Shown here: piece after piece, positions 6,338 to 37,710 of the stretch
How positions within the stretch are numbered: position 1 is the first letter of the stretch
Layout of the letters: each line of letters opens with the position of its first letter
DNA from: Lentisphaeria bacterium
GTDB taxonomy: Bacteria > Verrucomicrobiota > Lentisphaeria > Oligosphaerales > Oligosphaeraceae
DNA length: 64,000 bases
Direction: 5' to 3'
Assembly (NCBI GenBank): GCA_024405215.1
Contig: JAKSPB010000011.1
Location: 1-64,000 of the forward strand
Notes under the pieces: model-generated
Told to the model about the DNA's origin: nothing
Database searches by the model: none
What the model saw: only the letters and a program-made list of their open reading frames with translations
Position numbers and translations under genes: made by a program

Positions 6338-9300
6338 CTACTTTCCGGCAGGCGGCTGAAAATACGCCCTGCCGACCTGCCAGGCGTCCGTGTATCGCCA
6401 GGCGTTCCCAAGGACCTCCTGCCGACTCTCTTCCGGCGTCTTCTCCTGCCAGACGGGGCCGCGGAAACGCATGCCGTCGGCACTTGTTGCAGGTTGCAAC
6501 ATCAATGTTCCCTCTGGCGTCTGTCGCGGTCTCACCCAGAAGCCCTCGCCTGCGGGAAGCACGCCGTCCGCGCGGAACCGATAGCCTTCCTCCCGGTTGC
6601 AGACGACAATCTCCATTGTTCCCAATAGCCTGCAAAGCGCGGCAACATCCGCCTCGGCAGGCAAAGATAGCAACTGCCATTCGCCTTCCACCAATTCCTC
6701 CCAGCAGCCTGCGACATACGCCTGCAGGCGCTCCGCACCACTCTTCGGGTCCAGAGGAGCCCGGGAGGAATCCAGCAACAGCGCTGCGGAGATTTCCACT
6801 GCAGGCGGTTCCACCACCGTCACCTGAATTGTCCAAGGCACGGAAACCAGTCCGTCAGAGACATGGACCGTCACCATCTGCGTTCCAAACTGCTCCCAGC
6901 CAGGGGACAGCTGAAGCGTTCCACGGTTTTCTGCCGAAGACACGGCACACCATTCCGGCGCAGGAGCGGCCAGAGAGTATTCCAGCGAATCCGGTGCAGG
7001 ATTGTCCAAGTCAACATCATGCGCCAGCAACGGCACCTGAAGCACCTCGCCGACCGGAAGCGTCACGGCCGTCGGCATGGCCGAATCCCATTCCGGCGGG
7101 TCGTTCACGTTCCTCACGGGAATTGACAGCGTTCTTGTAATTGCCTTGCAGCCATCCGAAAGACACACCCCGATCGTATCCTCGCCGCAGAAATCCTTCT
7201 CCGGCGTATAATAGAGCCGATAGACAAAGGAGGTCTGGTCCGGCGGCAGGAGATACGCCGTGCCGTGCCGGGGCGCTTCCGCGATGGTCACCACCGTGGC
7301 GTCATCATCGCCATCCGTCGTGGAAAGGCGCAGATTCGTATCCGTGGAATCCTCCAGCACTTCCGCCAACTGGGTGTTGATGATGACCGGCGCAAGGTTC
7401 TTCCAGGCATGATCCGTCCAAAGATAGAGATTGCACTGGCCGTTTTCCGCCAATTGCGTGCCTTCCATTTCCATATCGGCGTATGTGCTGAATGCCGCAT
7501 ACCGCCCGGAGCCACCGAGGGCGGCTTCCCTTGCGCCTTGGATTGCCTTGGGCATCAGGCAGACCGCCTCCGCGTCGCCACCTTCCTTCCAATCCAGAAC
7601 ATAGACGCGCGTCTTGTCTTTGTCGTCTTCCTTTGCCTCGAAAAGCACACGACGGCCATTGGAAGACAAAAGCACATTGGACGCATCTTTCGGGATGTTC
7701 TTCAATTCCGCATAGCCGCTCTTGTTGCAACGAATCTTCGCATAGCTGCCGTCTGCGGCATTCCGGAAGAGGAAATATTCGCCATTCTGCGTCATCCCGC
7801 ACAAAGCCGACACTCCCTCCCGCAGCGTGCGTATCGCCGCCTTCTCCCCTGACCGGACATGGAGCGCATTCCGGGAAACCCATGCCAGAACCATCCCGTC
7901 AACCGAGAGTCTCGGATTTTTCGCATCCGCCGCAATCTGTGTGAACGTCTCGCCACGATCGTCGGAATACAGCAATGCGCCATTCCGGATTACCGCCAGC
8001 CGGCCATTTCGCGAAAGCCCAGGTGCCTCCTCCGTTGAAACCCCGTCCGCCAGCAATACCTCTTCGTCGCGAAGAAGAGTGCCAGTTGCCTTCCGTACCC
8101 GATAGGTCACCCCGTCCAGGGAAACGACAAGATCGTCCGCCCCGACATCCGCCAGGTTCCGGGAATACCTTTCCGCAGTAAAATCACAGAGATAGCCATC
8201 CACGGAATTGCGCTTGTCATCGATGACCAGCAGCGGCGCATTCGTCAGCATGTCCACTGCATTCTCCGTCGGGAAATGCAGACTCCTGTAGAAAAAGTCC
8301 TCCGTTACCAGCTCCTTGGAAAGCCATGGCGTCATGCAGGAGAAATCGGAGACAAGCACCTCCATCTCCTCGACATCGCCATTGTCCAGGACAAAACGCA
8401 GTTTCCACTTGCCGCATTGCTCTTCCGTCTCTACCATCCAAGGCAAAGATTCCCCGGAGCAAGGGACATTGGGCGGAATTTCCTCCCCAGTCGCCTGGCA
8501 GAAGAATCTTCCGGGGAACTCCATGCCCCCTACGCAGTTCCATAAAATGGTATTTTCCGCAGAAGCCCCGTGCATTCTCAGTCCGAAATCAATGTCCTTG
8601 GAGGCGCAAGGCACCCGAAGATTCCGAGAGTCCAGCGCAATCCAGGCGTTGAAGCGTTCCCGCCAAAGTGTTCCTGCGTCATCCACCCACGCGCACCAGC
8701 ATCCACTCGGAGAAAGCACCGCTCCCTGGGAAGCACCGTTTTCTCCTTCCGATACGCGCTGTCGATTTTGCGAATGGCTGTCATAGCGCCATAGCGCACC
8801 ATTGGCCGAATAAACCAGGAAACGGCCATTGCCGGCAAGCCGCGGCTGGCTTCCGCCATCCGTTGTAACCGTCTGCGCCACAAAAACGCCGTCCCCGCGC
8901 AAACTTCCCAGGCGCAACTGCAACCCGCGCATGCCGTCCACAAAATGGAATGCCGCCACCGAGCCATCCGCCGAACAGGAAACCGCCTGGAGGTCCTTCA
9001 GATACTCTCCCGCATAGACGCCGAGTTCCGTCCGCTCGCCGAGATTTTCCAAATCAACGACTTCAGAAGAGTACGTGTCCACTCTGCACAACGTCACCGT
9101 ATGCTCAGCGTCTTCCCGCAGATAGTAGAGAATCCCGCAATCCGCGGAAACTGCCGGCAGCAATCCCGTATCGCCGGGCAACGACATCTCCTGCGTTGCG
9201 GTAAAGGACATCCCCTGAAGCCACCCCCATTGCACTTTGCCTTGCTGATACGCCAGCACGTATGCCATCCCCTCTTCCAAGGAACTGATAAAAATTTTCC

Positions 9301-9676
9301 TTCCCCCAAACTGCTTCGCCTTGAGGCCGCTCTCTCCCCGACAATGCAATTTGTCCTGATAGAGTTCTGTTCCGATTTGGTCCCGGCTAATGCACCAGAA
9401 GTATTTTCCGTCATGCGTCCCGCAAATGCTCTTCGCCTCCCAGGAGAAATTGAAGAAATTCGGCTCCGGCTCGCAGGCGAACAACAGTGTCTTCTCTCCA
9501 GAAGACGACGCAAGATATCCGGCCAGAAAAGGAGCCTCCTTCCCTTCCCCCGGCGCAATCATCGCCACACGGCCATCATCCAGGACTTGCTGCACAGAGA
9601 CAACACCTGTCGCCAAGCGGTCCGCAGCAGCCAGAATAGCGCAAAACGACAAAACAAAAAGGAAAATATGCTTCAT
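6338..9676 (-). CDS. Large secreted protein: beta-propeller-like repeats, cadherin-like domains and C-terminal 'GWxLL...GEGFW' module
   Basis: A 1112-residue exported protein. A signal peptide (MKHIFLFVLSFCAILAAA) is followed by about 750 residues with recurring patterns such as 'NGRFLVYSANGALWRYD', 'NGRLAVIRNGALLYSDD' and 'NGEYFLFRNAADGSY', typical of TolB/WD-like propeller blades. A region with 'VRNVNDPPEW' and 'DTIGVCLSDG' follows (about 830-1000), characteristic of tandem cadherin-like/Ig repeats. The last 130 residues carry 'WQLLSLP' and 'AGEGFWVRPR', a module shared in outline with the gene at 16804-17775. The start at 9676 is fixed by the signal peptide and an AAGGA site. It is probably cell-surface or secreted; function unknown. 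Confidence 0.8.
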   Translation of the reverse strand: MKHIFLFVLSFCAILAAADRLATGVVSVQQVLDDGRVAMIAPGEGKEAPFLAGYLASSSGEKTLLFACEPEPNFFNFSWEAKSICGTHDGKYFWCISRDQIGTELYQDKLHCRGESGLKAKQFGGRKIFISSLEEGMAYVLAYQQGKVQWGWLQGMSFTATQEMSLPGDTGLLPAVSADCGILYYLREDAEHTVTLCRVDTYSSEVVDLENLGERTELGVYAGEYLKDLQAVSCSADGSVAAFHFVDGMRGLQLRLGSLRGDGVFVAQTVTTDGGSQPRLAGNGRFLVYSANGALWRYDSHSQNRQRVSEGENGASQGAVLSPSGCWCAWVDDAGTLWRERFNAWIALDSRNLRVPCASKDIDFGLRMHGASAENTILWNCVGGMEFPGRFFCQATGEEIPPNVPCSGESLPWMVETEEQCGKWKLRFVLDNGDVEEMEVLVSDFSCMTPWLSKELVTEDFFYRSLHFPTENAVDMLTNAPLLVIDDKRNSVDGYLCDFTAERYSRNLADVGADDLVVSLDGVTYRVRKATGTLLRDEEVLLADGVSTEEAPGLSRNGRLAVIRNGALLYSDDRGETFTQIAADAKNPRLSVDGMVLAWVSRNALHVRSGEKAAIRTLREGVSALCGMTQNGEYFLFRNAADGSYAKIRCNKSGYAELKNIPKDASNVLLSSNGRRVLFEAKEDDKDKTRVYVLDWKEGGDAEAVCLMPKAIQGAREAALGGSGRYAAFSTYADMEMEGTQLAENGQCNLYLWTDHAWKNLAPVIINTQLAEVLEDSTDTNLRLSTTDGDDDATVVTIAEAPRHGTAYLLPPDQTSFVYRLYYTPEKDFCGEDTIGVCLSDGCKAITRTLSIPVRNVNDPPEWDSAMPTAVTLPVGEVLQVPLLAHDVDLDNPAPDSLEYSLAAPAPEWCAVSSAENRGTLQLSPGWEQFGTQMVTVHVSDGLVSVPWTIQVTVVEPPAVEISAALLLDSSRAPLDPKSGAERLQAYVAGCWEELVEGEWQLLSLPAEADVAALCRLLGTMEIVVCNREEGYRFRADGVLPAGEGFWVRPRQTPEGTLMLQPATSADGMRFRGPVWQEKTPEESRQEVLGNAWRYTDAWQVGRAYFQPPAGK

Positions 9677-9789: not shown

Positions 9790-9842
9790 AAAAAAAAGGG
9801 GCTGTTGCCAACTTCCACGGAAGTCATGCAACAGCCCTTTTT
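9790..9842 (-). terminator. Rho-independent terminator after the outer-membrane barrel gene
   Basis: A long stem AAGGGCTGTTGC...GCAACAGCCCTTT (about 9796-9840) contains an inner stem ACTTCC/GGAAGT. On the minus strand it is followed by eight T residues (plus-strand A-run about 9790-9797). It lies 22 bases beyond the stop of the barrel gene. Almost the same stem is used at 53402-53446. Confidence 0.85.
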
Positions 9843-10916: not shown

Positions 10917-13900
10917 TTACTGAATCTGGTAGGCGATCCAGTCGCCAACCTGCTGGCCATTCTGGCTGAGACGCAGGACAACGTAGTCACCGGCGGCGGT
11001 ATCCACGCCGTCGATGGTCACGTTGATGCCATCGGCGGTGACTTCGCCCACGGCCTGGAAGCCGTTGTGCCATGCCATCTCCTCAATGGAGAAGTACTGG
11101 TAGTCGTACGCGACCTCCATGCCTTCCTCGAGGATGCCCTCGTAGGCGATGACGATGGTGTCACCCCTGCCTTCTGTCACTTTCGTCACGATGACCGTGC
11201 TGGTGGTCTTGGCCAGAGTGAAGTTCAGAGCATCGCTGGCCAGTTTCTTGCTGCCGGCAACGGCGGTCACCGTCCAGGAGTAGGTCTCAGGAACTTCGCT
11301 GATTGTCAGGTCGAAGGTGGCGTTGGTGGCGGAGATGTTGGACTTTTCAGCCACGACATAGCCGTAGGCATCGAAGATCTTCACCGTGTAGCTGTCGGCG
11401 GCAGCGGCGACGGGCCAGCTAAACTTCACGGCGCCGTTGGTCAGGACGGAACCATTGGCGGGCAGGAAGTCGCCTGCGCTCCACTTCAGTTCCTTTTCGC
11501 TGCTCTGGGGGACTTCCACCTTGACGACATCGGCCTGCTCGCCTTCGCCATTGGGGTTGAAGCCCTGGATGGAAACGACGTAGTTTCCTTCTTCCGTCAA
11601 CTGGAGTGCCAGACCTTCGATGTTGGGCAGGATCATGCCGTCCGCGTCAGCCTCGAAGTCCACAGGACCGATTTCCTTGACGACCTTTCCCTCGTTGTCT
11701 TTGACGGCAATGGTGTAGCTCTTGGCCATGGGGGCGGTGATGGCGGGCAGAGTGAACCAGCCGTTCTCGTCGGCGACCAGCTCGTCCTCTTCCGATCCAT
11801 CGGCAAGACCGGGCTCGTAGGGCAGACCATACTCGGTAACCACGATTTCCTTCTCTGCGCAGAGAATATCCGTAGTACCTTCATCCATGGTCCAGACGAA
11901 GACGGTGGCATTGACCGTGACGCCATCCACATATCCGGGATGACCGGCAGCGGCATAGTCGCCGGGATGCAGCTCGGTACGCTCGCCCTTGACAGTCAGG
12001 TCATAGACGGAACCATCGCTGGCCTCCAAGTGGAAGGTGTGGCCGTCGGCATGGCCTTCCGGATCCGCGCAATCGAAGGAGATGATGGGATACCAGGGAG
12101 TCGCGCCGACAAAGATGGTGACGGTGGCGGCATCGCTGGTCATGGCAGGAGTGCCATTGTCCGTGACCGTGAAGGTGACCTTGGCGCTCTTGCCGAAAGC
12201 CGCGTCTTCCTTGACGGTGTAGTTCAGCGTCACACACTGCGCGCTGTAAGCAGGAATCTCAACGGAAACGGAATCGGCTTCCAGAATCTGATCCGGGTCA
12301 TCAATGCTGACCAGGGCGGCTGCGGTGAGTTCCTGGCCTTCTTCGCTTGCGGGGCCCATGACGACATCGAAGTCAACGCTCATGTCGGCGCCCAGATCAT
12401 CAGGCTGGACATATTCGTCTTCGGCGAGGATCACAGGCTTGTCGTTGACCTCGTTGATCTGCAGGTAGACCTTGGCGGTATTGGTGGCGCCGGCTGCGGA
12501 TTCGTCGGTGACAGTGACCTCGAAGGAAGGCAATTCTTGCAGGGCGGCAGTGCTGAAATCGGCCGCGGGCTTGAAGGTAATGGCGCCGGTGGCGGCATCG
12601 ATGGCCAGGGTTCCGATCTCCTCGTCCAGTTCGGAGACTGCGTAGGTCAGGGAGTCAACGCCGTCCTCGGCATCCACATCGAGAGCCAGGGCATTGATGG
12701 AGACTTCGTCGGAATCCTCGTCCATCACCCAGGTGAACTCCAGATCATCCTCGGCGTCTTCCGCCTCCTGGTCGCCCAGTTTGGTGAAGTAAGGAGCGGT
12801 GTTGCCGATGGTCCAGATGCCCTCGCTGCTTCCTTCGGAAACAACGATATTTCCGTCGCCATAGGGCTCGGTGGTCGCAACTGCGGTTACCTTCACCATA
12901 TAGCCCTTCTTGATGACATTGTCGCCGGACAGAGTGTTACCGGTCTCGTTAAGGTCGATGTAGCTCGCGCCACCATCGATGCTGCAAGCCCAGGCGTAGG
13001 TATAGGAAACGGTGTCGCCGTCTTCGTCAATGGCGCCTGCGCCCTCGGCAATCAGAGAATCACCATGGAAGGCAAATTCGGGGAACCGGTTGACTACCGT
13101 GGGGGCGGAGGGCAGACAATCCTTGTCGACGACCACCACGGAATCCACCGCAGTGCCATAGGACTTGCTTTCGTCGTCAATGACCTTGAAAAGAATGCCG
13201 ATTTCATTGGCGGCATCGGGATGCTCGACAGTGCCATAGCCGGCGGTGGTAAACTCGACGGTGTAGGTCTTCCTGGTGGCGTCGCCTTCGGTGGCGATGA
13301 CCTCGGCAGTCAGGCCGGCCTCGGTCTCCACGGTCAGATCACCGACTGCGGCGGGGATGTTGCCGGCGGCCTTGTCGGTGGCGATGACCTCGGCGGTGAA
13401 TTTCACAGGCAGTCCGGCCTCGTCGACTTCAGGAATGTCGTCGGTGCTGAAAACGATGCTGGTGATTTCCGGAACGGGATTCTCGCAGTACAGAACCGTG
13501 ACCTCGATGGTCGCGGAATCAGCTTCGCCGTCGTTCACCTTGACGACGATGGTGTCGGCGACCTCGGAGGCCTCGGCATCCTTCACGGTGTAGGTCAGAA
13601 CATTGCCCTCGAAGGAGGCGGTGCCCTTGGAGGTGTCGTTGGAGACGACGATGAAGGTCAGGTCGTCATTGTCGGCGTCAGTGGCAGTGATGGTGGAAGT
13701 GCCGCTGGTGGCGACGCCCTTCTGGATGAAGATCTGGGAGGGGGAGGCCGCAGTGATGGCAGGAACGCTGTTGACGACCGTGATGAATTTGCCTTCTTCC
13801 TTCTCTTCCTCGAAGGAGTTCACGACTGCCATGGCCCAGAAGGAAGTGCCCTTCACCAGTTCGGGCTGTTTGGCCTGCTCCTGCTCATCAACCGTGAATT

Positions 13901-15302
13901 TCACGGAAGTCGTGACCACGTCCTCCTCATCCGGATCGACAGCCAGGATGTCGTAAGTCAATTCGGAGTCAGCCTTGACCTCCAGCTTGCTCAGCACCTG
14001 TCCCTTGTCCAGGACGTTGAAGGAAGTGATCTCGACGGAACGGTCGGTGTCGTTGATCGTGGCGACGATGTCCTTGTCGATGACAACCGGCTTGGGGCCG
14101 TCCTTGGTGATTTCGGTGAGGGTCAGGACGCCTTTGTAGGCCAGGGTGGCGGCGGGGTGCTTCACAGCCTCGTAGGAGACGACGTCGGTGGCGTTGGCAA
14201 AGTCGATGGAGAAAGAGCCCTGGCCTTCATCGACCAGGGCCAGGTTCAGGGTGATGGGGGCATAGCCGTCGGCGGAGAGGACCAGGGTGGCGGCGGAATC
14301 CATCTTGTCGCCGTCCACTTCGGTGGATTCCAGCAGATTCAGGGTCATGCTTGTGCCATCCTTGAAGGCGCCGCCTTCGAAGGTGATGATGTCGCACGTG
14401 GTGACATCGAACACGGGAGGATCATCCACGGGGTCGATGGCGATGGTGACCTCGCCGTCCGCAGTGGCGTCCACACCGGCCTTGGTGGATTTGGCGGTGA
14501 AGGAAATCACGGCCTCGCCGTTGAAGTCTTCTGCGGGCGTGAAGACGATCTTGCCGTTCTTGATGGCGACGGAACCGGCCTCCTCGCTGCCATTCTGCAT
14601 CTCCGCGGCGCTGAACATGACTTCGGCGCTGGGGGAGAGCTGCCTGCCGTCCCAGGTGGTGCACTCGAACTGATCGTCCGTGGCGGCGATGGCCAGGGGA
14701 TCGGCATCCTCATCCATCTCGTAGGAGCCGACGGTCTTGAAGTTGAAACCCTTCACCAGGGAGACCGCGGTGGGACCGGAGACGGCGACCTTGTTGGCGT
14801 AGTTGCCACCGGTCAGGGACTGGGCGGTATTGATCCTCACGAAGGAAGTGCCGAGATTGGCCTCGTCCACGGTATCCACGTTGTAATACACCGTGCCGAC
14901 GAAGGTTTTCGCCGTATTGGCGGCCATGGCTTCCTTGCCGACGCCGGCGTCGATCTTGATGTTCAGCTGGGCGGCAGTGAAGGTGGAAGGCTGCTTTCCG
15001 GCATCGTTCAGCAAAGCGCCATCTTCCCAGACAATGCTGTCCCAAGAGAGATTCGCGGGCTTTTCAATCAGGAAGTTGATGCCGCGCATGTTATTGTCAT
15101 CGGTGGTCAGATAAAGCTGGACGGCGGCCTTGGTGGAAACGCCGTCGATGTAATTGCCAGCCATGAACTCGCCGTTGACGATGGAGCCGGAAACCATGTC
15201 CAGCGACCAGTTGGCCTTTGCGGCCTGCGGGAAAACTGCGGCCGCGCAGAACAGCGCCGCCATCGCAATCTTCCGGAAGATTCCAGTAGAGTTGGAAGTC
15301 AT
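10917..15302 (-). CDS. Giant secreted protein with possible cohesin-like head and many cadherin/Ig-like repeats
   Basis: A 1461-residue exported protein with a signal peptide ending near 'FPQAAKA' (residue 29) and a strong AGGAG site. Residues about 30-190 ('STKAAVQLYLTTDDNNMRG', 'WEDGALLNDAG', 'KTFVGTVYYNVD') have the strand pattern and GALL-like turn seen in cohesin-type modules; this is a fold guess. The middle repeats 'FTPAEDFNGEAVISFTA', 'IDPVDDPPVF', 'INEVNDKPVI' and 'FKPAADFSTAALQ', typical of cadherin-like/VCBS-type tandem domains. The C-terminus has a fibronectin-like part ('GSVLTNGAVKFSWPVAAAADSYTVKIFD'). It is very acidic and Ca-binding is likely. The next gene upstream encodes dockerin-like modules, which fits a surface assembly. 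Confidence 0.78.
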   Translation of the reverse strand: MTSNSTGIFRKIAMAALFCAAAVFPQAAKANWSLDMVSGSIVNGEFMAGNYIDGVSTKAAVQLYLTTDDNNMRGINFLIEKPANLSWDSIVWEDGALLNDAGKQPSTFTAAQLNIKIDAGVGKEAMAANTAKTFVGTVYYNVDTVDEANLGTSFVRINTAQSLTGGNYANKVAVSGPTAVSLVKGFNFKTVGSYEMDEDADPLAIAATDDQFECTTWDGRQLSPSAEVMFSAAEMQNGSEEAGSVAIKNGKIVFTPAEDFNGEAVISFTAKSTKAGVDATADGEVTIAIDPVDDPPVFDVTTCDIITFEGGAFKDGTSMTLNLLESTEVDGDKMDSAATLVLSADGYAPITLNLALVDEGQGSFSIDFANATDVVSYEAVKHPAATLAYKGVLTLTEITKDGPKPVVIDKDIVATINDTDRSVEITSFNVLDKGQVLSKLEVKADSELTYDILAVDPDEEDVVTTSVKFTVDEQEQAKQPELVKGTSFWAMAVVNSFEEEKEEGKFITVVNSVPAITAASPSQIFIQKGVATSGTSTITATDADNDDLTFIVVSNDTSKGTASFEGNVLTYTVKDAEASEVADTIVVKVNDGEADSATIEVTVLYCENPVPEITSIVFSTDDIPEVDEAGLPVKFTAEVIATDKAAGNIPAAVGDLTVETEAGLTAEVIATEGDATRKTYTVEFTTAGYGTVEHPDAANEIGILFKVIDDESKSYGTAVDSVVVVDKDCLPSAPTVVNRFPEFAFHGDSLIAEGAGAIDEDGDTVSYTYAWACSIDGGASYIDLNETGNTLSGDNVIKKGYMVKVTAVATTEPYGDGNIVVSEGSSEGIWTIGNTAPYFTKLGDQEAEDAEDDLEFTWVMDEDSDEVSINALALDVDAEDGVDSLTYAVSELDEEIGTLAIDAATGAITFKPAADFSTAALQELPSFEVTVTDESAAGATNTAKVYLQINEVNDKPVILAEDEYVQPDDLGADMSVDFDVVMGPASEEGQELTAAALVSIDDPDQILEADSVSVEIPAYSAQCVTLNYTVKEDAAFGKSAKVTFTVTDNGTPAMTSDAATVTIFVGATPWYPIISFDCADPEGHADGHTFHLEASDGSVYDLTVKGERTELHPGDYAAAGHPGYVDGVTVNATVFVWTMDEGTTDILCAEKEIVVTEYGLPYEPGLADGSEEDELVADENGWFTLPAITAPMAKSYTIAVKDNEGKVVKEIGPVDFEADADGMILPNIEGLALQLTEEGNYVVSIQGFNPNGEGEQADVVKVEVPQSSEKELKWSAGDFLPANGSVLTNGAVKFSWPVAAAADSYTVKIFDAYGYVVAEKSNISATNATFDLTISEVPETYSWTVTAVAGSKKLASDALNFTLAKTTSTVIVTKVTEGRGDTIVIAYEGILEEGMEVAYDYQYFSIEEMAWHNGFQAVGEVTADGINVTIDGVDTAAGDYVVLRLSQNGQQVGDWIAYQIQ

Positions 15303-15348
15303 TTGTTTCTCCTAATGATTTGTTTTTCAGAATCAAAAAATGTATCGC

Positions 15349-16599
15349 CTAGGGAAGGAGGTTGCGGAGATTATCCAAGGCAGTCTGCAACTCCTCGGGC
15401 GTGGCGCCGAAGGTGAAGTCCGCCAGGCCATCCGCCGTGAACCACTCGTCCTCTGCGGTCGGGCAGCCGGCGCTCACGTAGTTGTAGAGGTACATGGCGT
15501 CGTTGTCGTCGACCTCGCCGTTGCCGTCGAAATCCAGGACTCCGGGATTTCCCTGCAAGGAGGCCAGGGCGGCCTCCAGATCAGCCTCTTCGGCGCCGAA
15601 GGTGAAGTCCGCCAGGCCATCCGCCGTGAACCACTCGTCCTCTGCGGTCGGGCAGCCGGCGCTCACGTAGTTGTAGAGGTACATGGCGTCGTTGTCGTCG
15701 ACCTCGCCGTTGCCGTCGAAATCAATGGTTCCGGTGGACTTGACGACCCAGTTGACAGAGGCGATGCGGACGTTGTTCACGCAGACGGTGGTGGAGATGG
15801 GCTTGTATGCCTTGGCCGTCGTGGCGGACAGCTCGAGCTTGTCCGTAGCGGAAGCGAAGTTGACAATCGCCGTATCGCCGGAATAGGCGATGTTCGTCGC
15901 GTCAAGACTCAGCAGCCAACCGGCTTCAGGAGCCACGACGCCGGAAGTGCCGTCGTTGGCGTAGTACTTCGCGCCGTCGTACAAATAGATCGGCCCGTCG
16001 CCGGTGGTCAGGAAGAGCGTGGCGGAGCTGGCGCTCCCCAGCTTCTCCACGGTGGCTTTGCCCGTGTAGAGATCCGTGGATGCGTCAGCCTCCAGATAGA
16101 CGGTCTGGCCGGAGGGATCCTGCGCGGGCACCACCGCGCGGGTGGCGGAACGAGTGGAGATGGTGTAGCTCTTGCCGGCCTTCAGGGAAAGATTCCCGGG
16201 CAGGGGCTTGGCCTCATCGACGCCCTCTTCCGCCACGTAGAGCGTGGCCTCGCCTTCGGCAAACTGGAAATACGCCGTGGCGTCAGTCGCCGCCGTCAGC
16301 ACCCACTTGTTGTCATCGCTGACGGTGCGAATATCCGTGCCCAGGCGGGAGAAGTCACCGGAGACCTTTGCCTCCGCGCCGAAGTTCTCGGAATTGGCCA
16401 GATAGACGTCCTTGACGCCGAACATAGCCGAGAAAGGCGGGAAGGCCTTCTGCTCCGCATTCGTCCCCTGGCCGAAAACCAGGGAAGGGTTGCCGGAAGC
16501 ACTGCCGACCATGACATTGACGGTAAACGCATTGGCGCCCCACACGGCGGAAGCCATGCAAACCGCAACTGCAATCAGTAGAGTTGTGCTTTTCTTCAT
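15349..16599 (-). CDS. Secreted protein with two identical C-terminal dockerin-like EF-hand modules
   Basis: A 416-residue exported protein with signal peptide MKKSTTLLIAVAVCMASAVWGA and an AGGAG site 11 bases before the start. Residues about 23-290 are an all-beta region of unknown family. Two 63-residue units follow; each holds an EF-hand calcium loop 'DFDGNGEVDDND' plus helix 'AMYLYNYV' and then 'AGCPTAEDEWFTADGLADF'. The two units are identical in protein and over 132 bases of DNA. The EF-hand plus helix matches the half-repeat of type I dockerins, although the spacing is longer than in the classical 60-residue domain. A binding partner might be the protein encoded immediately downstream. 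Confidence 0.8.
   Translation of the reverse strand: MKKSTTLLIAVAVCMASAVWGANAFTVNVMVGSASGNPSLVFGQGTNAEQKAFPPFSAMFGVKDVYLANSENFGAEAKVSGDFSRLGTDIRTVSDDNKWVLTAATDATAYFQFAEGEATLYVAEEGVDEAKPLPGNLSLKAGKSYTISTRSATRAVVPAQDPSGQTVYLEADASTDLYTGKATVEKLGSASSATLFLTTGDGPIYLYDGAKYYANDGTSGVVAPEAGWLLSLDATNIAYSGDTAIVNFASATDKLELSATTAKAYKPISTTVCVNNVRIASVNWVVKSTGTIDFDGNGEVDDNDAMYLYNYVSAGCPTAEDEWFTADGLADFTFGAEEADLEAALASLQGNPGVLDFDGNGEVDDNDAMYLYNYVSAGCPTAEDEWFTADGLADFTFGATPEELQTALDNLRNLLP
15403..15723. repeat. 132-bp perfect direct repeat encoding the dockerin-like module
   Basis: Bases 15403-15534 and 15592-15723 are identical, with an offset of 189 bases (63 codons). The 57 bases between them differ from the flanks. 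Perfect identity at synonymous sites shows recent duplication or gene conversion and could allow module loss or gain by recombination. Confidence 0.92.
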
Positions 16600-16803: not shown

Positions 16804-17775
16804 TCAGTGAAGGAGATACCCCTTTCCGAAGACCGGGGTCTCTTCCGCAGCCGGGAGGTAGCGGCTTGCCAGCGCGTTCCAAATCCAGTTTCCCCTCGGC
16901 ACTTTCACCGTCGGCGGGGCAAGCGCCTTCTTGTCTCCCTCGAACGCGCCTTGCAAACCCACGAAATTCCACTTTCCGGCAACGCCCTTCGCCATGACGG
17001 AAACATTGCCCGGGCGGCATAGGCCCTTCAAGGACACTTCCGCCTGTTCCCGACCGTCCCAATACAGCCAGAAGCCATTTCCGGAAAGCATTCCGTCCCA
17101 GGAGGAGACCCGTTCCCAAACGCCCTTTTCGGACACCTGGTAGAGCGGGACGTCCGCCAGAAGCATCCTGGAGTCGACTTCTCCCCCCCTGGTCTCATCG
17201 AAGGGAGTGGCAAGCAGATTCCATCCGGGGAACACCTCCGTCGTCACCGTCGCCTCGAAGAACTGCATTTCCGCCGTCAGGACGTAGTCGCCGGGAGCGA
17301 CCGTCAAGGCAACCACGCTTTTCACCGCGCTCCAGTCCGCGACCACCCTGCCCTCCGAGTCAAGCAGCTTCAGGGTCGCATTGTCAGGAAGCGCGCCATA
17401 CACGCGCGTCAGCGTGATGGGACAGTCCATTTGGTCCTGGGTGTAGATGCACAGCTTCCAGCTTTTCATAAAGGAGGAATTCTGGCGGATGCGGTAGCTT
17501 ATCAAGGAATAGTAGTTCACGCCATGCTGAATGGCCAGACGATCGTCCTGACCATCCGGGGACGGCGCCGGAAGGATTTTGCTGAAGTCGATATAGTCCG
17601 TGTCCCCCAAGGCCACATAGGCCTGCTGGTCCTCGTTCTTGAAAACGCCGTTCAATTCCCAGGCGACCACGAGATTGCCGGCGTCGTCAAGCCCTCCCGG
17701 CAACCCGTCAGCCAGGGAAAAGTTGACACACGCGCAAACGGCAAGCAAAAGAATGTTTCTATGCAGGAAATTCAT
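16804..17775 (-). CDS. Secreted protein with 'GWNLLATP...GNGFWLYW' C-terminal module
   Basis: A 323-residue exported protein with signal peptide MNFLHRNILLLAVCACVNFSLA. The first half is a beta domain ('YYSLISYRIRQNSSFMKSWKLCIY'). The second half holds the motif series 'GWNLLATPF', 'SGNGFWLYW', 'GKWNFVGLQ' and 'FGKGYLLH', a repeated module I associate with C-termini of exported proteins in Lentisphaerae/Verrucomicrobia-type genomes. It ends right after 'GKGYLLH', which could be a sorting signal. The start at 17775 is fixed by the signal peptide. It is the first gene of the minus-strand run of exported proteins; function unknown. Confidence 0.72.
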   Translation of the reverse strand: MNFLHRNILLLAVCACVNFSLADGLPGGLDDAGNLVVAWELNGVFKNEDQQAYVALGDTDYIDFSKILPAPSPDGQDDRLAIQHGVNYYSLISYRIRQNSSFMKSWKLCIYTQDQMDCPITLTRVYGALPDNATLKLLDSEGRVVADWSAVKSVVALTVAPGDYVLTAEMQFFEATVTTEVFPGWNLLATPFDETRGGEVDSRMLLADVPLYQVSEKGVWERVSSWDGMLSGNGFWLYWDGREQAEVSLKGLCRPGNVSVMAKGVAGKWNFVGLQGAFEGDKKALAPPTVKVPRGNWIWNALASRYLPAAEETPVFGKGYLLH

Positions 17776-18060
17776 AACCAATAAGACAAAGGAAAAAAAG
17801 GATCCGTTCCCGTTATTTTCCAGAATATGGCACAACTTGGAAAGTTTTTTTTGAGAACACCAAAAAAACTGAAGACGGAACACCATGCGCCACGGGAAAT
17901 GCAGGCATAGGACGTGCCAGGTGCATGGATCGCCCCCTTGCGGACGCCAGGTGGCGTACAGGAACCATTTCAGGCATTAGATTCTCGTAATTGTTTTTGG
18001 AAACGCTTCCTGCATGTCATCGTGCAGGAACGGAAGGGGACGCATCTTCATCAGACAGGC

Positions 18061-19638
18061 ATGGACAATAGAAAGGAACAGGAGAGAGACGAATTGCACC
18101 GCGCGATATGGAGCATCGCCGACGATCTGCGCGGAAGCGTGGACGGATGGGACTTCAAGGCATACGTGCTCGGCACCATGTTCTACCGCTTCCTCTCGGA
18201 AAATCTGGCGAACTACATCGACCGGGGAGAGTGGGAGGCCGGCGACAAGGGCTTCTCGTATGCGAAGGTCGCAGACGCAGACGCGGAATCCATCCGCGAA
18301 GAAATGGTGGACGCCAAGGGCTTCTTCATTTTGCCGTCGGACCTCTTCGTCAACGTGCAGGCCCAAGCCGCCTCGGACGAGAATCTGAACGAGACGCTGG
18401 AGCGCGTCTTCCGCCGCATCGAGGAATCCGCCAAGGGCAGCGAAAGCGAAGCCAACTTCACAGGGCTCTTCGACGACTTCGACGTGAACTCCAACAAGCT
18501 GGGCGCCAGCGTGGCAAAACGCAACGACACCCTGCGGAAGCTGCTGAACGGCGTGGCGAACATGGGCCTCGGCGACTACCGCTCCAACACCATCGACGCC
18601 TTCGGAGACGCCTACGAATACCTGATGGGCATGTACGCCTCCAACGCGGGCAAGAGCGGCGGCGAGTTCTTCACGCCGCAGGAGGTCTCGGAACTGCTGG
18701 CGCGGCTGGCCACCTACGGAAAGACGGAAGTCAACAAGATATACGATCCCGCCTGCGGAAGCGGCTCGCTGCTGCTGAAGGCGGCGCGGCTTCTCGGCAG
18801 CGGCAAGGTCCACCACGGCATCTACGGGCAGGAGATCAACATCACCACGTACAATCTCTGCCGCATCAACATGTTCCTCCACGACGTCGGCTACGAGAAC
18901 TTCGACATCGCCTGCGAGGACACCCTCCTCCATCCGCAGCATTGGGACGACGAGCCTTTCGAGGTCATCGTCTCCAATCCGCCCTATTCCATCAAATGGC
19001 CAGGAGACGACGACGCGACGCTCATCAACGACCCGCGCTTCGCCCCCGCAGGCGTCCTCGCCCCAAAGTCCAAGGCGGACATGGCCTTCATCATGCACTC
19101 CCTAGCCTGGCTGGCCGCCAACGGCACCGCAGCCATCGTCTGCTTCCCAGGCATCATGTACCGCGGCGGTGCGGAGCAGAAGATCCGGAAGTATCTCGTG
19201 GACAACAACTACGTGGAGGGCGTCATCCAGCTGCCCGACAACCTCTTCTTCGGGACCACCATCGCAACCTGCATCCTCGTCCTCAAGAAGAACCGCAAGG
19301 ACACCGCGGTCACCTTCCTGGACGCCTCCAAGGAGTGCGTGAAGGTCACGAACAACAACAAGCTCACCGACGACAACATCGCACGCATCGTCGCCGCCTT
19401 CGCCGGACGGCAGGACATCCCGCACGTGGTCAAGATGGCCTCATACGACCAAGTTGCCTCCGAGAACTACAACCTCTCCGTCTCCACCTACGTGGAACAG
19501 GAGGACACCCGCGAGAAGACCGACATCGACGCCCTCAACCTCCAGCTGGAGCACATCGTCGGCCACATCCACACCCTCCGCCAGGAGATCGACAAAATCG
19601 TCCACGAAATCACTTTCGTCGAGGAGAACGACCGATGA
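18061..19638 (+). CDS. hsdM: Type I restriction-modification DNA methyltransferase subunit HsdM
   Basis: A 525-residue N6-adenine methyltransferase subunit that methylates the target chosen by HsdS. The N-terminal HsdM helical domain ('[14 protein letters not shown]', '[16 protein letters not shown]') occupies about residues 8-150. The SAM-binding motif '[13 protein letters not shown]' is near residue 229 and the catalytic 'NPPY' near residue 306; '[15 protein letters not shown]' is also typical. Length matches the family (about 500-530). The start at 18061 gives the normal N-terminus; the longer frame from 17914 adds an unrelated leader. The stop overlaps the hsdS start as ATGA, so the two are coupled. 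The plus strand begins here after a 285-base divergent gap. Confidence 0.97.
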
Positions 19639-20840
19639 GCCATCTCGACGATCTCATCCGACAGCTCTGCCCAGACGGCGTACCATACAAGACTCTGGGG
19701 GAGGTTCTTCCACGTGTAAAAGGCACCCCGATAACTGCGGGAAAAATGAAGGAAATTGCTACACTTAACGGCGATATTCGCATCTTTGCGGGCGGAAAAA
19801 CTGTTATAGATACAGAACTTGAGAAAATTCCCAACGCCAACATCATTAACAAGCCTGCTATTCTTGTGCAGTCAAGAGGCGTTATAGACTTTATATATTA
19901 CGATAAGCCATTTACATTCAAGAATGAAATGTGGGCATATATCGGCGTAACTAATGTATCTCTAAAATTCATATATTATGTGCTTAAAAGCAATGTAGAT
20001 TTCTTCAGGAATGCGGCTTCCGGAATGGGTAGCCTTCCACAAATATCATTGCACGTCACAGAAGACTTCCGCATCCCCGTGCCGCCGTTGCCTGTGCAGG
20101 AGGAGATCGTGCGGATTCTGGACGCCTTCACCACGCTGGAGGCGGAGCTGGAGGCGGAGCTGGAGGCACGCCGTCGCCAGTACGAATACTATCTTAATTA
20201 TATACTCGATTTGTCCGTATTAACGCCACAGAAAATCATGTATGTTGGTGATTTGTTTGAGATAAAGAACGGTTTAAACAAAGAGAAGAGCGCCTTTGGG
20301 CATGGAACGCCCATTGTCAATTTTACAGATGTTTATAACAAGCGTTTCTTAACGGCTGCCATGCTACAGGGGAAAGTATCACTTACAGATTCAGAAATAG
20401 AGAGGTATAGAGTGCGCAAAGGCGATGTTTTTTTTACCAGAACCTCTGAGACCAAAGAAGATGTTGGCATGTCCAGTACTGTCATAGAGGATATTCCAAA
20501 CTGCACATTTAGCGGTTTTGTCCTTCGAGCAAGACCGTTGACTAATCTGCTTTTGCCAAAGTTCTGTTCCTATTACTTTTCAACCAAGCAAGTCAGAAAC
20601 AACATCGTACGCTATGCCTCTTTTACAACAAGGGCCACCACATGTGGTCCGAAGCTGGCAAAGATACCCGTGCCAATCATTCCTATAGAGGAGCAGTCCC
20701 GCATCGTAGGCATCCTTGACCGTTTTGACACGCTGTGCAACGACCTGTGCCAGGGGCTTCCGGCGGAGATCGCCGCCCGCCACAGGCAATACGAATACTA
20801 CCGTGACAGGCTTCTGTCCTTCAAGGAGGCGAAGGGCTGA
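19635..20840 (+). CDS. hsdS: Type I restriction-modification specificity subunit HsdS
   Basis: A 401-residue DNA-recognition subunit with two target recognition domains: TRD1 at about residues 15-150 and TRD2 at about 200-350. Each is followed by a conserved helical spacer, '[23 protein letters not shown]' and then '[22 protein letters not shown]', both ending in an 'RQYEYYxxxLLSF'-type segment. The TRDs are visibly richer in A+T than the spacers and hsdM/hsdR, as expected when TRDs are exchanged by recombination. The start overlaps the hsdM stop. No frameshift or homopolymer typical of phase-variable hsdS genes is seen. Confidence 0.95.
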
Positions 20841-20922
20841 AGCCGCTTCATTGCCCATGACCTCCTCACACGACACAGCCGAACGTCCCAAGGACGGAAA
20901 TCACGCCTCCACCGCCTCTCCC

Positions 20923-21036
20923 ATGCCGAAGAAGGAGACTTTGGAGGCAATCTCGGAGGAGGAACGCATTGCCCGTGATCCCAATGTCAAAGGCTACAGA
21001 GACATGAAGGAGCTGATCAATGCCTTGAACTCATGA
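20923..21036 (+). pseudogene. RelB/DinJ-type antitoxin remnant (C-terminal part)
   Basis: The frame 'KKETLEAISEEERIARDPNVKGYRDMKELINAL' matches the C-terminal toxin-binding part of RelB/DinJ antitoxins ('...ETLAALEEAERLxxDPNxKxYxDxxEL'). The ribbon-helix-helix DNA-binding half (about 45 residues) is missing; residues upstream in the same frame, from an ATG at 20857, are unrelated. The stop overlaps the next frame's start as ATGA, the normal arrangement of such pairs. This is a remnant inserted between hsdS and the AAA gene. Confidence 0.65.
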
Positions 21037-21155
21037 AATACGAGGTCAAGTTCACATCCCAGTTCAAGAAGGACTACAGACTTGCCCAGAGGAGGCACCT
21101 TGACATGGCAAAACGCCGTGTGTTTCTTCCTGCATTACATTATGTACCGTACTAA
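21033..21155 (+). pseudogene. YafQ/RelE-type mRNA interferase toxin, truncated
   Basis: It opens MKYEVKFTSQFKKDYRLAQRR, the hallmark N-terminus of YafQ toxins, which cleave mRNA at ribosomes. Homology stops near residue 25 and the frame ends at 40 residues, against about 90 for the family. The catalytic C-terminal half is absent. With the truncated antitoxin before it, this is a dead toxin-antitoxin pair left in the restriction locus. Confidence 0.72.
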
Positions 21156-21212
21156 TGACGCGGACGATGTATCTATGGCCCAGTTCCGCGCAGTCAAGCA
21201 GGAGGAAACACC

Positions 21213-22796
21213 ATGAAAGACCTCACGGCAAGCGTTTTCACATTCGAAGATCTCATCCTTGGCGACTACCTGTATGTGGACAAGACCGCCCATCTATGGG
21301 AACTCGTGAAGGGCCGCAAGGGCATCTACTTCCTCTCACGCCCGCGCCGCTTCGGTAAATCTCTGACGCTTTCCACTCTGGAGGCCATCTTCCAGGGGAA
21401 GCGCGAACTCTTCAAGGGGCTTGCCATCGACAGCAAGCCCTACGACTGGAAAAGATATCCCGTCATCCATCTGGATTTCGGAGACTGTGCCGTGCAAAAC
21501 GCGGGAGAATTGCGGGACTATCTCTATTTCAGCCTTTGCTCGTTGGCGCAGGCCATAGGCGTCCAGCCGTTCATGGACAAGTCACAGTTGGGCTTGTCCC
21601 TCACGAATCTGATCAATTCCATGGACAAGGGGGATGGGGTCGTGGTGCTGGTGGACGAATATGACAAGCCGCTACTGAACATGCTGGGGAAGCCGGAAGC
21701 CGCCAACGAGATGCTTCCCGTGATGAAGGGCTTCTACTCCGCCATCAAGAAATGCGAGCCCCACGAGCGCTTTGTCTTCGTGACGGGCGTCAGCAAGTTC
21801 TGCCATGTCTCCCTATTCTCCGACCTGAACAACCTGCAGGACATCTCCACGTCCAGCCGCTTCGCCACCATGCTTGGATACACGCAGAAGGAACTGGAGG
21901 CGAATTTCGACGACCGCCTGCCGCAGGCACAGGAGAAGCTGGCCATCTCGCAGGAAGAACTGTTGAGGCGCCTGAAGCTCTGGTACGACGGCTACCGCTT
22001 CGCGCCAGACGCGGAGACCGTCTATAATCCCGTATCCATCGCAAATTTCTTCATGAACGACGGCCTCTTCAGCAACTACTGGTTCTCCACGGGCACCGCC
22101 AGCTCTCTCTTCGCGTTGATGCGACGTGACGACGTGGGCCTACCTGATATCGTGGAGCATTCAGTCGCCGGCGACCTCTTCAATTCCTTCGACCTGGCGG
22201 AAGTGGATCTCCAGAAGCTCATGTACCAGACAGGCTACCTGACCATCGGAGAGACGGAGATTATTGGCGCCGGCACAGAAGAAATGGAGCAGCGATATCA
22301 TCTCCGCTTCCCTAACAAGGAGGTGCGCAGCTCCTTCAACGACCAGATCATGGATCACTTCGCGGGACTCAAGAGAGCCCAATCCAGCGACCTGACACGA
22401 CTGCTTGTGGCGGACATAAGAAGTGGTGACGTGAATGCCTTCATGGAGCGCCTGAGAGGGCTCTTCGCAAAGATTCCATACGACCTGCATGGCCGCAGAG
22501 AGCGGGACTACCAGACCATCCTCTACGTAGTCTTCCTGATGCTGGAAGTCTTCATCCAGGGCGAATACCACACCAACGAAGGACGCATTGATCTGGTGCT
22601 CTCCGTCGAAGAGTGGACATACGTCGTCGAACTGAAACTGAACAGGAGCGCGGAGAAGGCCATGGCGCAAATCTGGGACAGGGACTACGTCAGAGGCTTC
22701 CTTGGACAGAACAGGCGCATCATGGCAGTGGGCGTGAACTTCGACGAGACACGCGCCCAGATCGACAACTGGCTCGCCGAAGAGGTGACGGAATAG
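21213..22796 (+). CDS. AAA-ATPase-like protein with C-terminal PD-(D/E)XK nuclease domain (AAA-ATPase_like/PDDEXK_9 family)
   Basis: A 527-residue protein of a family common in gut anaerobes and of unproven function. The N-terminal ATPase has 'RPRRFGKSLTL' (Walker A-like, about residue 43) and 'VVLVDEYDKPLL' (Walker B, about 147). The C-terminus has the nuclease motif 'NEGRIDLVL...WTYVVELKL' (Asp and Glu-x-Lys, about 455-475). A good AGGAGG site precedes the start. It lies between hsdS and hsdR in the same direction, 21 bases before hsdR. It could add to the restriction locus or simply be a mobile passenger. Confidence 0.85.
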   Translation: MKDLTASVFTFEDLILGDYLYVDKTAHLWELVKGRKGIYFLSRPRRFGKSLTLSTLEAIFQGKRELFKGLAIDSKPYDWKRYPVIHLDFGDCAVQNAGELRDYLYFSLCSLAQAIGVQPFMDKSQLGLSLTNLINSMDKGDGVVVLVDEYDKPLLNMLGKPEAANEMLPVMKGFYSAIKKCEPHERFVFVTGVSKFCHVSLFSDLNNLQDISTSSRFATMLGYTQKELEANFDDRLPQAQEKLAISQEELLRRLKLWYDGYRFAPDAETVYNPVSIANFFMNDGLFSNYWFSTGTASSLFALMRRDDVGLPDIVEHSVAGDLFNSFDLAEVDLQKLMYQTGYLTIGETEIIGAGTEEMEQRYHLRFPNKEVRSSFNDQIMDHFAGLKRAQSSDLTRLLVADIRSGDVNAFMERLRGLFAKIPYDLHGRRERDYQTILYVVFLMLEVFIQGEYHTNEGRIDLVLSVEEWTYVVELKLNRSAEKAMAQIWDRDYVRGFLGQNRRIMAVGVNFDETRAQIDNWLAEEVTE

Positions 22797-22817
22797 CCTG
22801 CATCTGACTTTTGAAGC

Positions 22818-25800
22818 ATGCCCACCCCCTCATACAACGTAATCATGGAGCTGCCGGAGCAGACGGTGGTCACGGAGTATGTCCCGGAGGCGAACCGCTC
22901 CGACGCCTACCAGAGCGAAGCAGCGCTGGAGAAGGCCTTCATCGCGCAGCTGGTCGCACAGGGATACGACTATCTGCCCATCCACGGCGGCGACGATCTG
23001 GTGGCCAACCTGCGTACGCAGCTGGAGAGGCTGAACGGCATCGTCTTCTCCGAGGACGAATGGCGGCGCTTCTTCCGCGAGTGCATCGCCGTGGAAAACG
23101 AGGGCATCGTGGACAAGACACGCCGCATCCAGGAGGACTACGTGCAGGTCCTGAAGCGGGACGACGGGACATCCAAGAACATCACCCTTCTGGACCACAG
23201 GAACATCCACAACAACTCCCTGCAGGTCATCAACCAATATGCAGAGACTGGCGGCAACTACGACAACCGCTACGACGTGACGGTCCTCGTCAACGGGCTG
23301 CCGCTGGTGCACATCGAACTGAAGCGCCGCGGCGTGCCCCTCAAGGAGGCCTTCAACCAGATCGAACGCTACCAGCGGGACAGCTTCTGGGCGGGATGCG
23401 GCCTCTACGAATACGTGCAGATCTTCGTCATCTCCAACGGCACCCACACGAAATACTATTCCAACACCACGCGCTTCTCCTCCATCCAGCAGCGCGCCAA
23501 CGCGCGCAGGAAGGGCGCGAAGACCTCAAACTCCTTCGAGTTCACATCATTCTGGGCCGACGAGAAGAACCATGCCATCACCGACCTGGTGGATTTCACG
23601 CGGACATTCTTCTCGCGGCACACGCTGCTGGCCATCCTGACGCGATACTGCGTCTTCACCTCGGAGGAGCTGCTGCTTGTCATGCGCCCCTATCAGATCG
23701 CGGCCACGGAAAGGCTGCTGAACCGCGTGGAGGTGGCCGACAACTACAAGTGGCGCGGAAGCCTCCGCGGCGGCGGCTACATCTGGCACACCACGGGCAG
23801 CGGAAAGACGCTGACATCCTTCAAGAGCGCGCAGCTGGCGACCTCCCGCCTCGGCGTGGAGAAGGTGCTCTTCGTGGTGGACAGAAAGGACCTGGACTAC
23901 CAGACGATGAAGGAATACGACCGCTTCGAGAAAGGGGCCGCAAACGGCAACCGCAACACGGCCATCCTGCAACGGCAGCTTGAGGACAGGGACGCCAACG
24001 GCAATCCACACGAGTACCGCATCATTGTAACCACCATCCAGAAGCTGGATGTCTTCCTCGCCAAGAACGCCGACCATCCCATCTACCACAGGCACGTGGT
24101 GCTCATCTTCGACGAATGCCACCGCTCACACTTCGGCGACATGCACAGCCGAATCGTCAGGCGCTTCGACAACTACAACATCTTCGGCTTCACGGGGACG
24201 CCCATCTTCGCCGTCAACGCGGGAACCGGCGGCGATCCCAGGCTCCGCACAACGGAGCAGGCCTTCGGCGACAGGCTCCACACCTACACCATCATCGACG
24301 CCATCAACGACGGAAACGTGCTGCCATTCCGCATCGACTACGTGAACACGCTCCACCACAAGGACGGCCGCAAGGACTACGACGTGGAAGGCATCGACAC
24401 GGAGGAGGCGCTCATGGCACCCGAGCGCATATCGAACGTCGTGGCGTACGTCCTGGAGCACTTCGACCAGAAGACCATGCGCTCCAGCGGATTCTATTCC
24501 TTCAACAGGCTGCTCAACGTGGCGGAGGTGGCAGCGAACCAGAAGACGGAGGAGCTCCGGGCGAAGCAACGCCTCAACGGCTTCAACGCCATCCTCGCCA
24601 CGGCTTCCGTGCCGGCCGCCATACGCTACTACCGGGAGTTCCAGAGGCAGATGGCGGCGAAGCCGTCGCAGCGTCTGAAGGTGGCCATGATCTTCTCCTA
24701 CGCGCCCAACGAGGAGGAGGACGGCGGCGTCCTCGCGGAGGAGAACAGCGACGACACATCCATGCTGGACGCGTCCTCCCGGGACGCGCTGGAAGCCGCC
24801 ATCGCCGACTACAACGCCGCCTTCGGCACCGCCTACGACACCAGCGCCGCGAAGTTCCCGAACTACTACAAGGACCTTTCGCTGCGCATGAAGAACCGCG
24901 AGGTGGATCTGCTCATCGTGGTCAACATGTTCCTCACGGGATTCGACGCCACAACCCTGAATACGCTCTGGGTGGACAAGAACCTCAGGATGCACGGCCT
25001 GCTGCAGGCCTTCTCCCGGACCAACCGCATCCTCAACTCCGTCAAGTCCTTCGGAAACATCGTCTGCTTCCGCAATCTCCAGAAGGCCACCGAGGAGGCC
25101 ATCGCGCTCTTCGGAGACAAGAACGCCAGCGGGATCGTCCTCCTGCGCTCCTTCCGGGACTACTATGACGGCTACACCGACGACAATGGCGTCTATCAGA
25201 AGGGCTATGCGGAACGCATCAAGGAGCTCCTGGAGAAGTTCCCGCCGGACACGGAAATCGTCGGCGAGGAACGGAAGCGCGAGTTCGTGCGGCTCTTCGG
25301 GCAGCTCCTTCGCCTCAGGAACATCCTTACCTCCTTCGATGAGTTCGAGGGAATGCAGCTCCTCTCGGAATACGACTACCAGAACTACACGGGCCGCTAC
25401 AACGACCTCTATCTGGAGCTGCGCGGACATCAGGGCGGCAAGGAGAACATCAACGACGACCTGGTCTTCGAGATGGAGCTTGTCCGGCGCGACGAGGTGA
25501 ACATCGACTACATCCTCATGCTCGTGGAGAAGTATCACGACAACCACGGGAAGGACAAGGAGATCCGCGCATCCATCGACCGCGCCGTCGGCTCCAGCCT
25601 TGCGCTGCGCTCCAAGCGCGAGCTCATCGACGGTTTCATCGCCACCGTCAACGTCGCCGCAGGAGACACGCGGGACGCGTGGCGCGCGTACGTCAGGGAA
25701 CGTCTGGAAGCCGACACGGAAGCCCTCATCGCGGAGGAGCATCTCGCGCCCGCCGCCACGCGGGAGCTCCTCGCCAACGCCTTCCGCGAAGGAGAACTCC

Positions 25801-30654: not shown

Positions 30655-30761
30655 TGAAAAAGGTGGGCTGCGTCCCCGGAGCTGGTGCCCCGAGGGGACG
30701 GCATGCCCCAAAATGAAAGGGGTTAAAAATGATAAACGTTCTAAAAGCTCTGGATACTCTA

Positions 30762-37647: not shown

Positions 37648-37710
37648 GTTTTTGAACTCCATTGTCTGTTGTTTAATGTTGTTGATTTGAATTACCATTA
37701 CAATTCCGGG

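What the first reader, a model, noticed from the sequence alone, without database searches (positions are those of the whole stretch)
10917..16599. Neighbouring cohesin-like and dockerin-like secreted proteins: possible surface complex
A 416-residue exported protein ends in two identical EF-hand modules (DFDGNGEVDDND plus helix), and the next gene encodes a 1461-residue exported protein whose first 160 residues look cohesin-like. Neighbouring scaffold and dockerin proteins are the plan of a cellulosome. Modules of this kind from PVC-group gut bacteria are poorly studied, and the spacing here differs from the classical dockerin. Seen: EF-hand motifs, signal peptides, adjacency. Inferred: cohesin-like fold and interaction.
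Basis: partly seen in the sequence, partly recalled or inferred. Interest (0 to 1): 0.72.

Follow-up and report, generated by a model that had tools for sequence, protein, structure and literature searches.

The report
Cohesin–dockerin gene pair without enzymes
Two neighbouring genes of a bacterium of the Lentisphaerota encode an unusually long dockerin and a divergent cohesin on a long surface stalk, next to an outer-membrane barrel; the pair is conserved across the bacterium's order and looks like a calcium-dependent clip for a surface structure, not a cellulose-digesting cellulosome.

Summary
The 416-aa protein (P2, 15349-16599) has two EF-hand/dockerin half-repeats sharing 132 identical nt (Pfam Dockerin_1 above cut-off). 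The 1461-aa neighbour (P1, 10917-15302) starts with a ~155-aa domain and continues with Ig/cadherin repeats. No Pfam model sees that N-domain, but an AlphaFold2 model of its counterpart in a relative has pLDDT around 90 and its 12 best PDB matches are all cohesins. A P1 homologue (30% identical over 1020 aa) has a Pfam-recognised cohesin in the same slot. P2 is followed by P1 in all 19 loci with sequence downstream (gaps 23-94 bp), usually then by an outer-membrane beta-barrel and a large beta-rich secreted protein. The P1 family was found only in this order (26 of 198 class genomes).

The cellulosome reading is not supported: no catalytic domain was found in the operon, and this genome has one dockerin protein and one cohesin of this type. 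Binding is inferred: a single-chain model had both domains confident but not their relative placement (pTM 0.50). Best reading: a dedicated, non-enzymatic cohesin-dockerin clip, presumably Ca2+-dependent, of an outer-membrane surface assembly, with a double-length dockerin. New variant of a known kind.

The parts
16804..17886 (-). G1: 360-aa exported beta protein with a C-terminal 'GWNL ... G.G(Y/F)W' module; upstream neighbour, detected only in the closest relatives; probably a separate transcript (terminator-like stem at 16697-16680)
   Evidence: no Pfam hit
15349..16599 (-). P2: 416-aa exported protein: signal peptide, N-terminal beta domain, C-terminal double dockerin module
15544..15732 (-). 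P2 dockerin half-repeat 1 (residues 290-352): Ca loop DFDGNGEVDDND (15688-15723) plus helices
   Evidence: Pfam Dockerin_1; 132-nt exact repeat; helices in the homologue's model
15352..15543 (-). P2 dockerin half-repeat 2 (residues 353-416): Ca loop DFDGNGEVDDND (15499-15534) plus helices
   Evidence: Pfam Dockerin_1
10917..15302 (-). P1: 1461-aa exported protein: signal peptide, cohesin-type domain, then Ig/cadherin-like repeats (Big_9, Cadherin_5)
14748..15212 (-). P1N: divergent cohesin-type domain (about residues 31-185)
   Evidence: homologue modelled at pLDDT around 90 and matched to cohesins; profile link of the window group to that homologue's group P=1.2e-4; Pfam cohesin in the same slot of homologue L100
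9865..10812 (-). 315-aa outer-membrane beta-barrel protein (OMP_b-brl / Opacity-like, below the Pfam cut-offs; its homologue in L100 is above the OMP_b-brl cut-off)
6338..9676 (-). G5: large exported beta-rich protein with Big_9/cadherin repeats and a 'GEGFWVRP' C-terminal module (the listed ORF starts at 9811; the Met of the signal peptide is at 9676)

Best explanation
P2 and P1 are the two halves of a dedicated, non-enzymatic cohesin-dockerin clip. P2 carries at its C-terminus an elongated, twofold-repeated, calcium-loop dockerin; P1 carries at its N-terminus a divergent cohesin on a stalk of Ig/cadherin-like domains. Both are exported. In the proposed mechanism, Ca2+ folds the P2 dockerin, which docks on the flat face of the P1 cohesin. 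The P1 stalk, the outer-membrane beta-barrel and the large beta-rich protein encoded downstream form or anchor a surface assembly (adhesive fibre or coat). Shown here: genes, domains, cohesin fold of the family, operon conservation, no recognisable enzyme domain. Inferred: the P2-P1 contact, calcium dependence, anchoring by the barrel, adhesion or coat function.
For: Dockerin_1 above cut-off in P2. AF2 model of relative L062: dockerin part and N-domain each around 90 pLDDT; the best 12 PDB matches of the model are all cohesins, E down to 1.9e-6, target TM up to 0.76. P1 homologue L100: 30% identity over 1020 aa (E=8e-67) with a Pfam Cohesin in the N-terminal slot, 31.0 bits against a cut-off of 24.1. 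L097 and L101 N-domains match a cohesin profile at P=2.6e-6 and 5e-7. A further order member, G029, has a Pfam cohesin and the P1 C-terminal family in one 1835-aa ORF. P2-P1 same-strand adjacency in 19 of 19 loci, usually followed by the barrel and G5. Of the family genomes (this one included) with a P2 match, all but three (G000, G024, G026) show no Pfam-detectable cohesin at E<=1e-3, which leaves P1N as the obvious partner. One of each type in this genome, two pairs in Oligosphaera ethanolica.
Against: No confident relative placement of the two domains (pTM 0.50). The window's own N-domain was modelled only without an alignment, at pLDDT 37.7, which is uninformative; its fold rests on homology to L062's domain at 17% identity. 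Direct profile comparison of the window group with cohesins is not significant. No solved dockerin is among the best 50 rows of the fold search. Operon neighbours need not touch. A classical cohesin-like module exists elsewhere in this genome (C12) and could be an alternative partner.
Confidence: 0.62

Rival explanations
1. P2's dockerin binds another cohesin (for example the classical one in the giant C10-peptidase protein on contig C12), and P1N binds a different ligand; the operon holds parts of one surface structure that do not touch through these modules.
For: C12 encodes a cohesin-like module (20.8 bits, below the cut-off) and a classical dockerin in one protein.
Against: That protein carries its own classical dockerin with 33-residue spacing, unlike P2's. 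Most relatives with P2 have no Pfam cohesin at all. P2 is followed by P1 wherever sequence is available.
Confidence: 0.15
2. The cohesin fold of P1N is only an adhesive tip or spacer, and the EF-hand repeats of P2 only a calcium-stabilised helical domain; there is no cohesin-dockerin pairing.
For: The fold search also lists other beta-sandwich adhesins (CLIPPER domain 9ifr, pilin CppA 5xcb). P2 modules are twice the usual dockerin length and about half of the family has lost the ligands of loop 2. No interface predicted with confidence.
Against: Cohesins outrank all other folds. Pfam names both kinds of module within the family, and the two genes are fixed neighbours.
Confidence: 0.18
3. A cellulosome-like multi-enzyme system in which P1 is a scaffoldin and P2 one of several dockerin-bearing cargo proteins.
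For: Scaffold/dockerin neighbourhood. A relative (G001, UBA1724) has a 1094-aa protein with two P1N-type modules and a P1-like ORF that ends in a P2-type dockerin, so chains could be built.
Against: No catalytic or carbohydrate-binding domain in the operon. One cohesin in P1. One P2-type dockerin protein and one P1N in this genome.
Confidence: 0.05

Closest known systems
Cellulosomal type I/II/III cohesin-dockerin pairs (e.g. C. thermocellum CipA 1ohz; C. acetobutylicum CaCohA2-CaDoc0917 6kgf)
   Same: Cohesin jelly roll of the family (best fold matches); calcium loops D.D.[ND]G....D with Asp at position 12; Pfam Dockerin_1
   Different: Loops 63 instead of about 33 residues apart, about 64-residue halves with extra helices; loop 2 degenerate in about half the family; no enzymes, no multi-cohesin scaffoldin, no CBM; P1N below Pfam detection
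Noncellulosomal cohesin/dockerin proteins (Peer et al. 2009, cited in PMC9012536) and the cohesin/dockerin adhesins of ANME archaea and Seep-SRB/HotSeep-1 partners (PMC9012536, PMC10553843)
   Same: Cohesin and dockerin proteins, in HotSeep-1 adjacent, alongside Ig/cadherin-type domains and outside cellulose degradation; proposed adhesion role
   Different: Here a fixed operon with an outer-membrane barrel, single-module partners and an elongated dockerin; Lentisphaerota
Scaffoldin-containing PVC bacterium Limihaloglobus (PMC11557425) and cellulosome-like system of Ca. Stygibacter (PMC8542988)
   Same: Cohesins/dockerins outside Bacillota; PVC superphylum in the first case
   Different: Listed as scaffoldin-containing, and Stygibacter pairs a tandem-cohesin scaffoldin with dockerin enzymes; this operon has neither several cohesins in one protein nor enzymes

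Membership tests
Dockerin (PF00404) - P2 C-terminus | Two F-hand calcium loops with Asp at 1, 3 and 12, each followed by a helix, in tandem | tested here: met
   Pfam Dockerin_1 29.3 bits > 22.9, two stretches; DFDGNGEVDDND twice; helices after each loop in the homologue's model
Dockerin (PF00404) - P2 C-terminus | Compact module of about 60-70 residues with loops about 33 apart | tested here: not met
   Loops 63 residues apart, module about 127 residues; same-genome classical dockerin has 33
Dockerin (PF00404) - P2 C-terminus | Ca2+-dependent high-affinity binding to a cohesin | not testable with these tools
   Needs a binding assay; single-chain model gave pTM 0.50
Cohesin (PF00963) - P1 N-terminus | Pfam/HMM recognition | tested here: not met
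   No hit for the window domain or 13 relatives in A2; hit at 31.0 bits for homologue L100 in the same slot
Cohesin (PF00963) - P1 N-terminus | Jelly-roll beta-sandwich of cohesin topology | tested here: met
   For the family through relative L062, not for the window sequence itself: model around 90 pLDDT, top 12 PDB hits all cohesins; the window's own single-sequence model failed
Cohesin (PF00963) - P1 N-terminus | Dockerin binding | not testable with these tools
   Inferred from the conserved gene pair only
Cellulosome | Scaffoldin with several cohesins plus many dockerin-bearing plant-polysaccharide enzymes | tested here: not met
   One P1N-type cohesin, one P2-type dockerin protein, no CAZyme domain in the operon; the two other dockerin proteins are peptidase-like
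Outer-membrane beta-barrel (OMP_b-brl / Opacity) | Pfam above cut-off | tested here: inconclusive
   Window protein 24.7 bits, below 28.7; L100 homologue 32.5 bits, above

The most novel reading that the evidence does not exclude
A new class of cohesin-dockerin pair: an elongated (about 127-residue) duplicated dockerin dedicated to one divergent cohesin, encoded as a fixed operon with an outer-membrane barrel and a beta-rich giant, building a non-enzymatic calcium-switched surface fibre or coat specific to an order of Lentisphaerota.
Probability: 0.4. Interest if true: 0.7.

Novelty: new variant of a known kind. Interest (0 to 1): 0.55.

Why it matters
Cohesin-dockerin pairs are among the strongest non-covalent protein contacts known and are used as building parts. 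A one-to-one, enzyme-free, operon-encoded pair with a double-length dockerin would extend the family's structural range, would suggest how little-studied Lentisphaerota build a surface assembly, and comes with an isolate to test it in (Oligosphaera ethanolica DSM 24202 has two copies of the pair).

Tried and rejected
Single-sequence AlphaFold2 of the window N-domain: pLDDT 37.7, uninformative (it should have been sent with an alignment). PDB sequence searches with the domain or its profile: nothing. Profile-profile comparison of the domain family with PVC and CipA cohesins: not significant for the window group (P=0.073), weak for a combined profile (P=0.016). Full-length hmmscan of L100's P1 missed the cohesin that the isolated domain shows clearly (against 81), so absence of a Pfam hit in whole giant proteins is not evidence of absence. 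Diphtheria-toxin rows in the fold search are spurious (target TM below 0.2, rmsd 16-19). Cellulosome rejected (no enzymes, single pair).

Full report
What is there. P2 (15349-16599, 416 aa) has a signal peptide, an N-terminal beta region with no Pfam name, and a C-terminal module of two half-repeats, each with the loop DFDGNGEVDDND. Pfam Dockerin_1 hits it twice, above the cut-off. The two halves share 132 consecutive identical nucleotides, so the copy is recent or kept uniform. The loops are 63 residues apart; the ordinary dockerin on contig C12 of the same genome spaces them by 33 (sequence). P1 (10917-15302, 1461 aa) has a signal peptide, a domain of about 155 residues with no Pfam hit, and Ig/cadherin-like repeats (Big_9 4.6e-14, Cadherin_5).

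Is the N-domain a cohesin? By sequence alone the window domain is invisible. Three lines link it to cohesins. (1) Structure of a homologue: in relative L062 (JAFPYX010000025, goat abomasum MAG) P2 and P1 happen to be in the same frame, so a read-through of the natural sequence (TAG, TAA read as residues) gave one chain with the dockerin end and the P1 N-domain. With a 22-row alignment (A6) AlphaFold2 gave mean pLDDT 82, about 90 in both domains, below 50 in the linker, pTM 0.50. The 12 best Foldseek matches in the PDB are all cohesins (best E 1.9e-6; target TM up to 0.76). (2) Homology to the window: the window-type group of N-domains matches the L062-type group, P=1.2e-4 over 143 columns, and the latter matches the third group at 1.4e-5. 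(3) Same slot: P1 homologue L100 (30% identity over 1020 aa, E=8e-67) has at its N-terminus a domain that Pfam calls Cohesin, 31.0 bits against a cut-off of 24.1 (also found by the genome scan). In L097 and L101 the slot domain matches a cohesin profile at P=2.6e-6 and 5e-7. The fold is thus well supported for the family and inferred for the window sequence.

Conservation. P2 relatives were found in 20 of 60 related genomes and by profile in 21 of 48 of the order. The public records are MAGs, mostly Lentisphaerota and many from rumen, and the isolate Oligosphaera ethanolica DSM 24202, which has two pairs. In all 19 loci in which sequence follows P2, P1 follows on the same strand after 23-94 bp (window, L040, L042, L043, L045, L046, L050, L051, L055, L056, L058, L059, L094, L096, L097, L098, L100, L101, and G011 across its two contigs, for which the gap could not be measured). 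The remaining P2 genes end at contig ends. In most loci P1 is followed by a beta-barrel and G5; in L045 and L094 no barrel was detected. The C-terminal P1 family occurs in 26 of 198 genomes of the class, all of this order. In relative G001 a P1-like ORF ends in a P2-type dockerin and another protein has two P1N modules, so the two modules can be attached to other proteins of the system.

Mechanism. Best reading: Ca2+ folds the P2 dockerin, which clips onto the P1 cohesin; the Ig/cadherin stalk, the barrel and G5 make or anchor a surface structure. The clip contact is inferred from module identity, fixed adjacency, and the absence of other Pfam-detectable cohesins in all but three family genomes with P2. 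The model gave no confident relative placement (pTM 0.50), which neither supports nor excludes binding. In about half of the relatives loop 2 has lost its calcium ligands while the following helix 'A...YN(F/Y)' stays; those are the members of P1N group B, as expected for co-inherited partners, though shared descent alone explains this.

Comparison. It looks like a cohesin-dockerin pair and is best filed as a divergent cohesin plus an elongated dockerin. It is not a cellulosome. Closest in spirit are the noncellulosomal cohesin/dockerin proteins and the cohesin/dockerin adhesins of methane-oxidising consortia (PMC9012536, PMC10553843). A survey of cellulosome-displaying bacteria mentions one PVC member, Limihaloglobus (PMC11557425), and the two Lentisphaerae bins of a camel rumen study had no annotated cohesin or dockerin (PMC6071333 Table 1). 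That these exact operons have not been described is my reading of five literature searches in an open-access library, not a proof.

Noticed in passing
genome contig C12, L047:3342-18929 and onward: A 5195-aa exported C10-peptidase-like giant carries a cohesin-like module (21 bits) and, about 270 residues on, a classical dockerin; a second cohesin-like start follows, apparently interrupted by a frame change.
   Followed up: partly
genome contig C76, L048:2510-5248: A 912-aa exported peptidase-like protein (HELMH motif) has a classical dockerin at its N-terminus.
   Followed up: no
window 15403-15545 and 15592-15734: 143-nt direct repeat, 97% identical with 132 consecutive identical nt: recent duplication or conversion of the dockerin half.
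   Followed up: yes
L041:15194-18478 (UBA1724): 1094-aa exported protein with two P1N-type domains and a C-terminal 'PGWNML...YWFYL' module, directly upstream of another P1-like gene.
   Followed up: partly
L043:6545-10984 (= L062): P1 of this goat MAG is split into two ORFs by a frame break or stop.
   Followed up: no
window 31087-37698 and 28516-30711: A 2203-aa BspA-type LRR/DUF285/Flg_new giant and a C10 peptidase with CARDB and RTX-like repeats: the genome is rich in giant surface proteins.
   Followed up: no
window 17914-25940: Type I restriction-modification genes (modification and specificity subunits, HsdR) directly upstream on the other strand.
   Followed up: no
window 6338-9676, 16804-17886, and many relatives: A recurrent C-terminal module 'GWNL....P ... 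G.GYW.Y' ends many exported proteins of these genomes; no Pfam name found; might be a sorting or attachment module.
   Followed up: no
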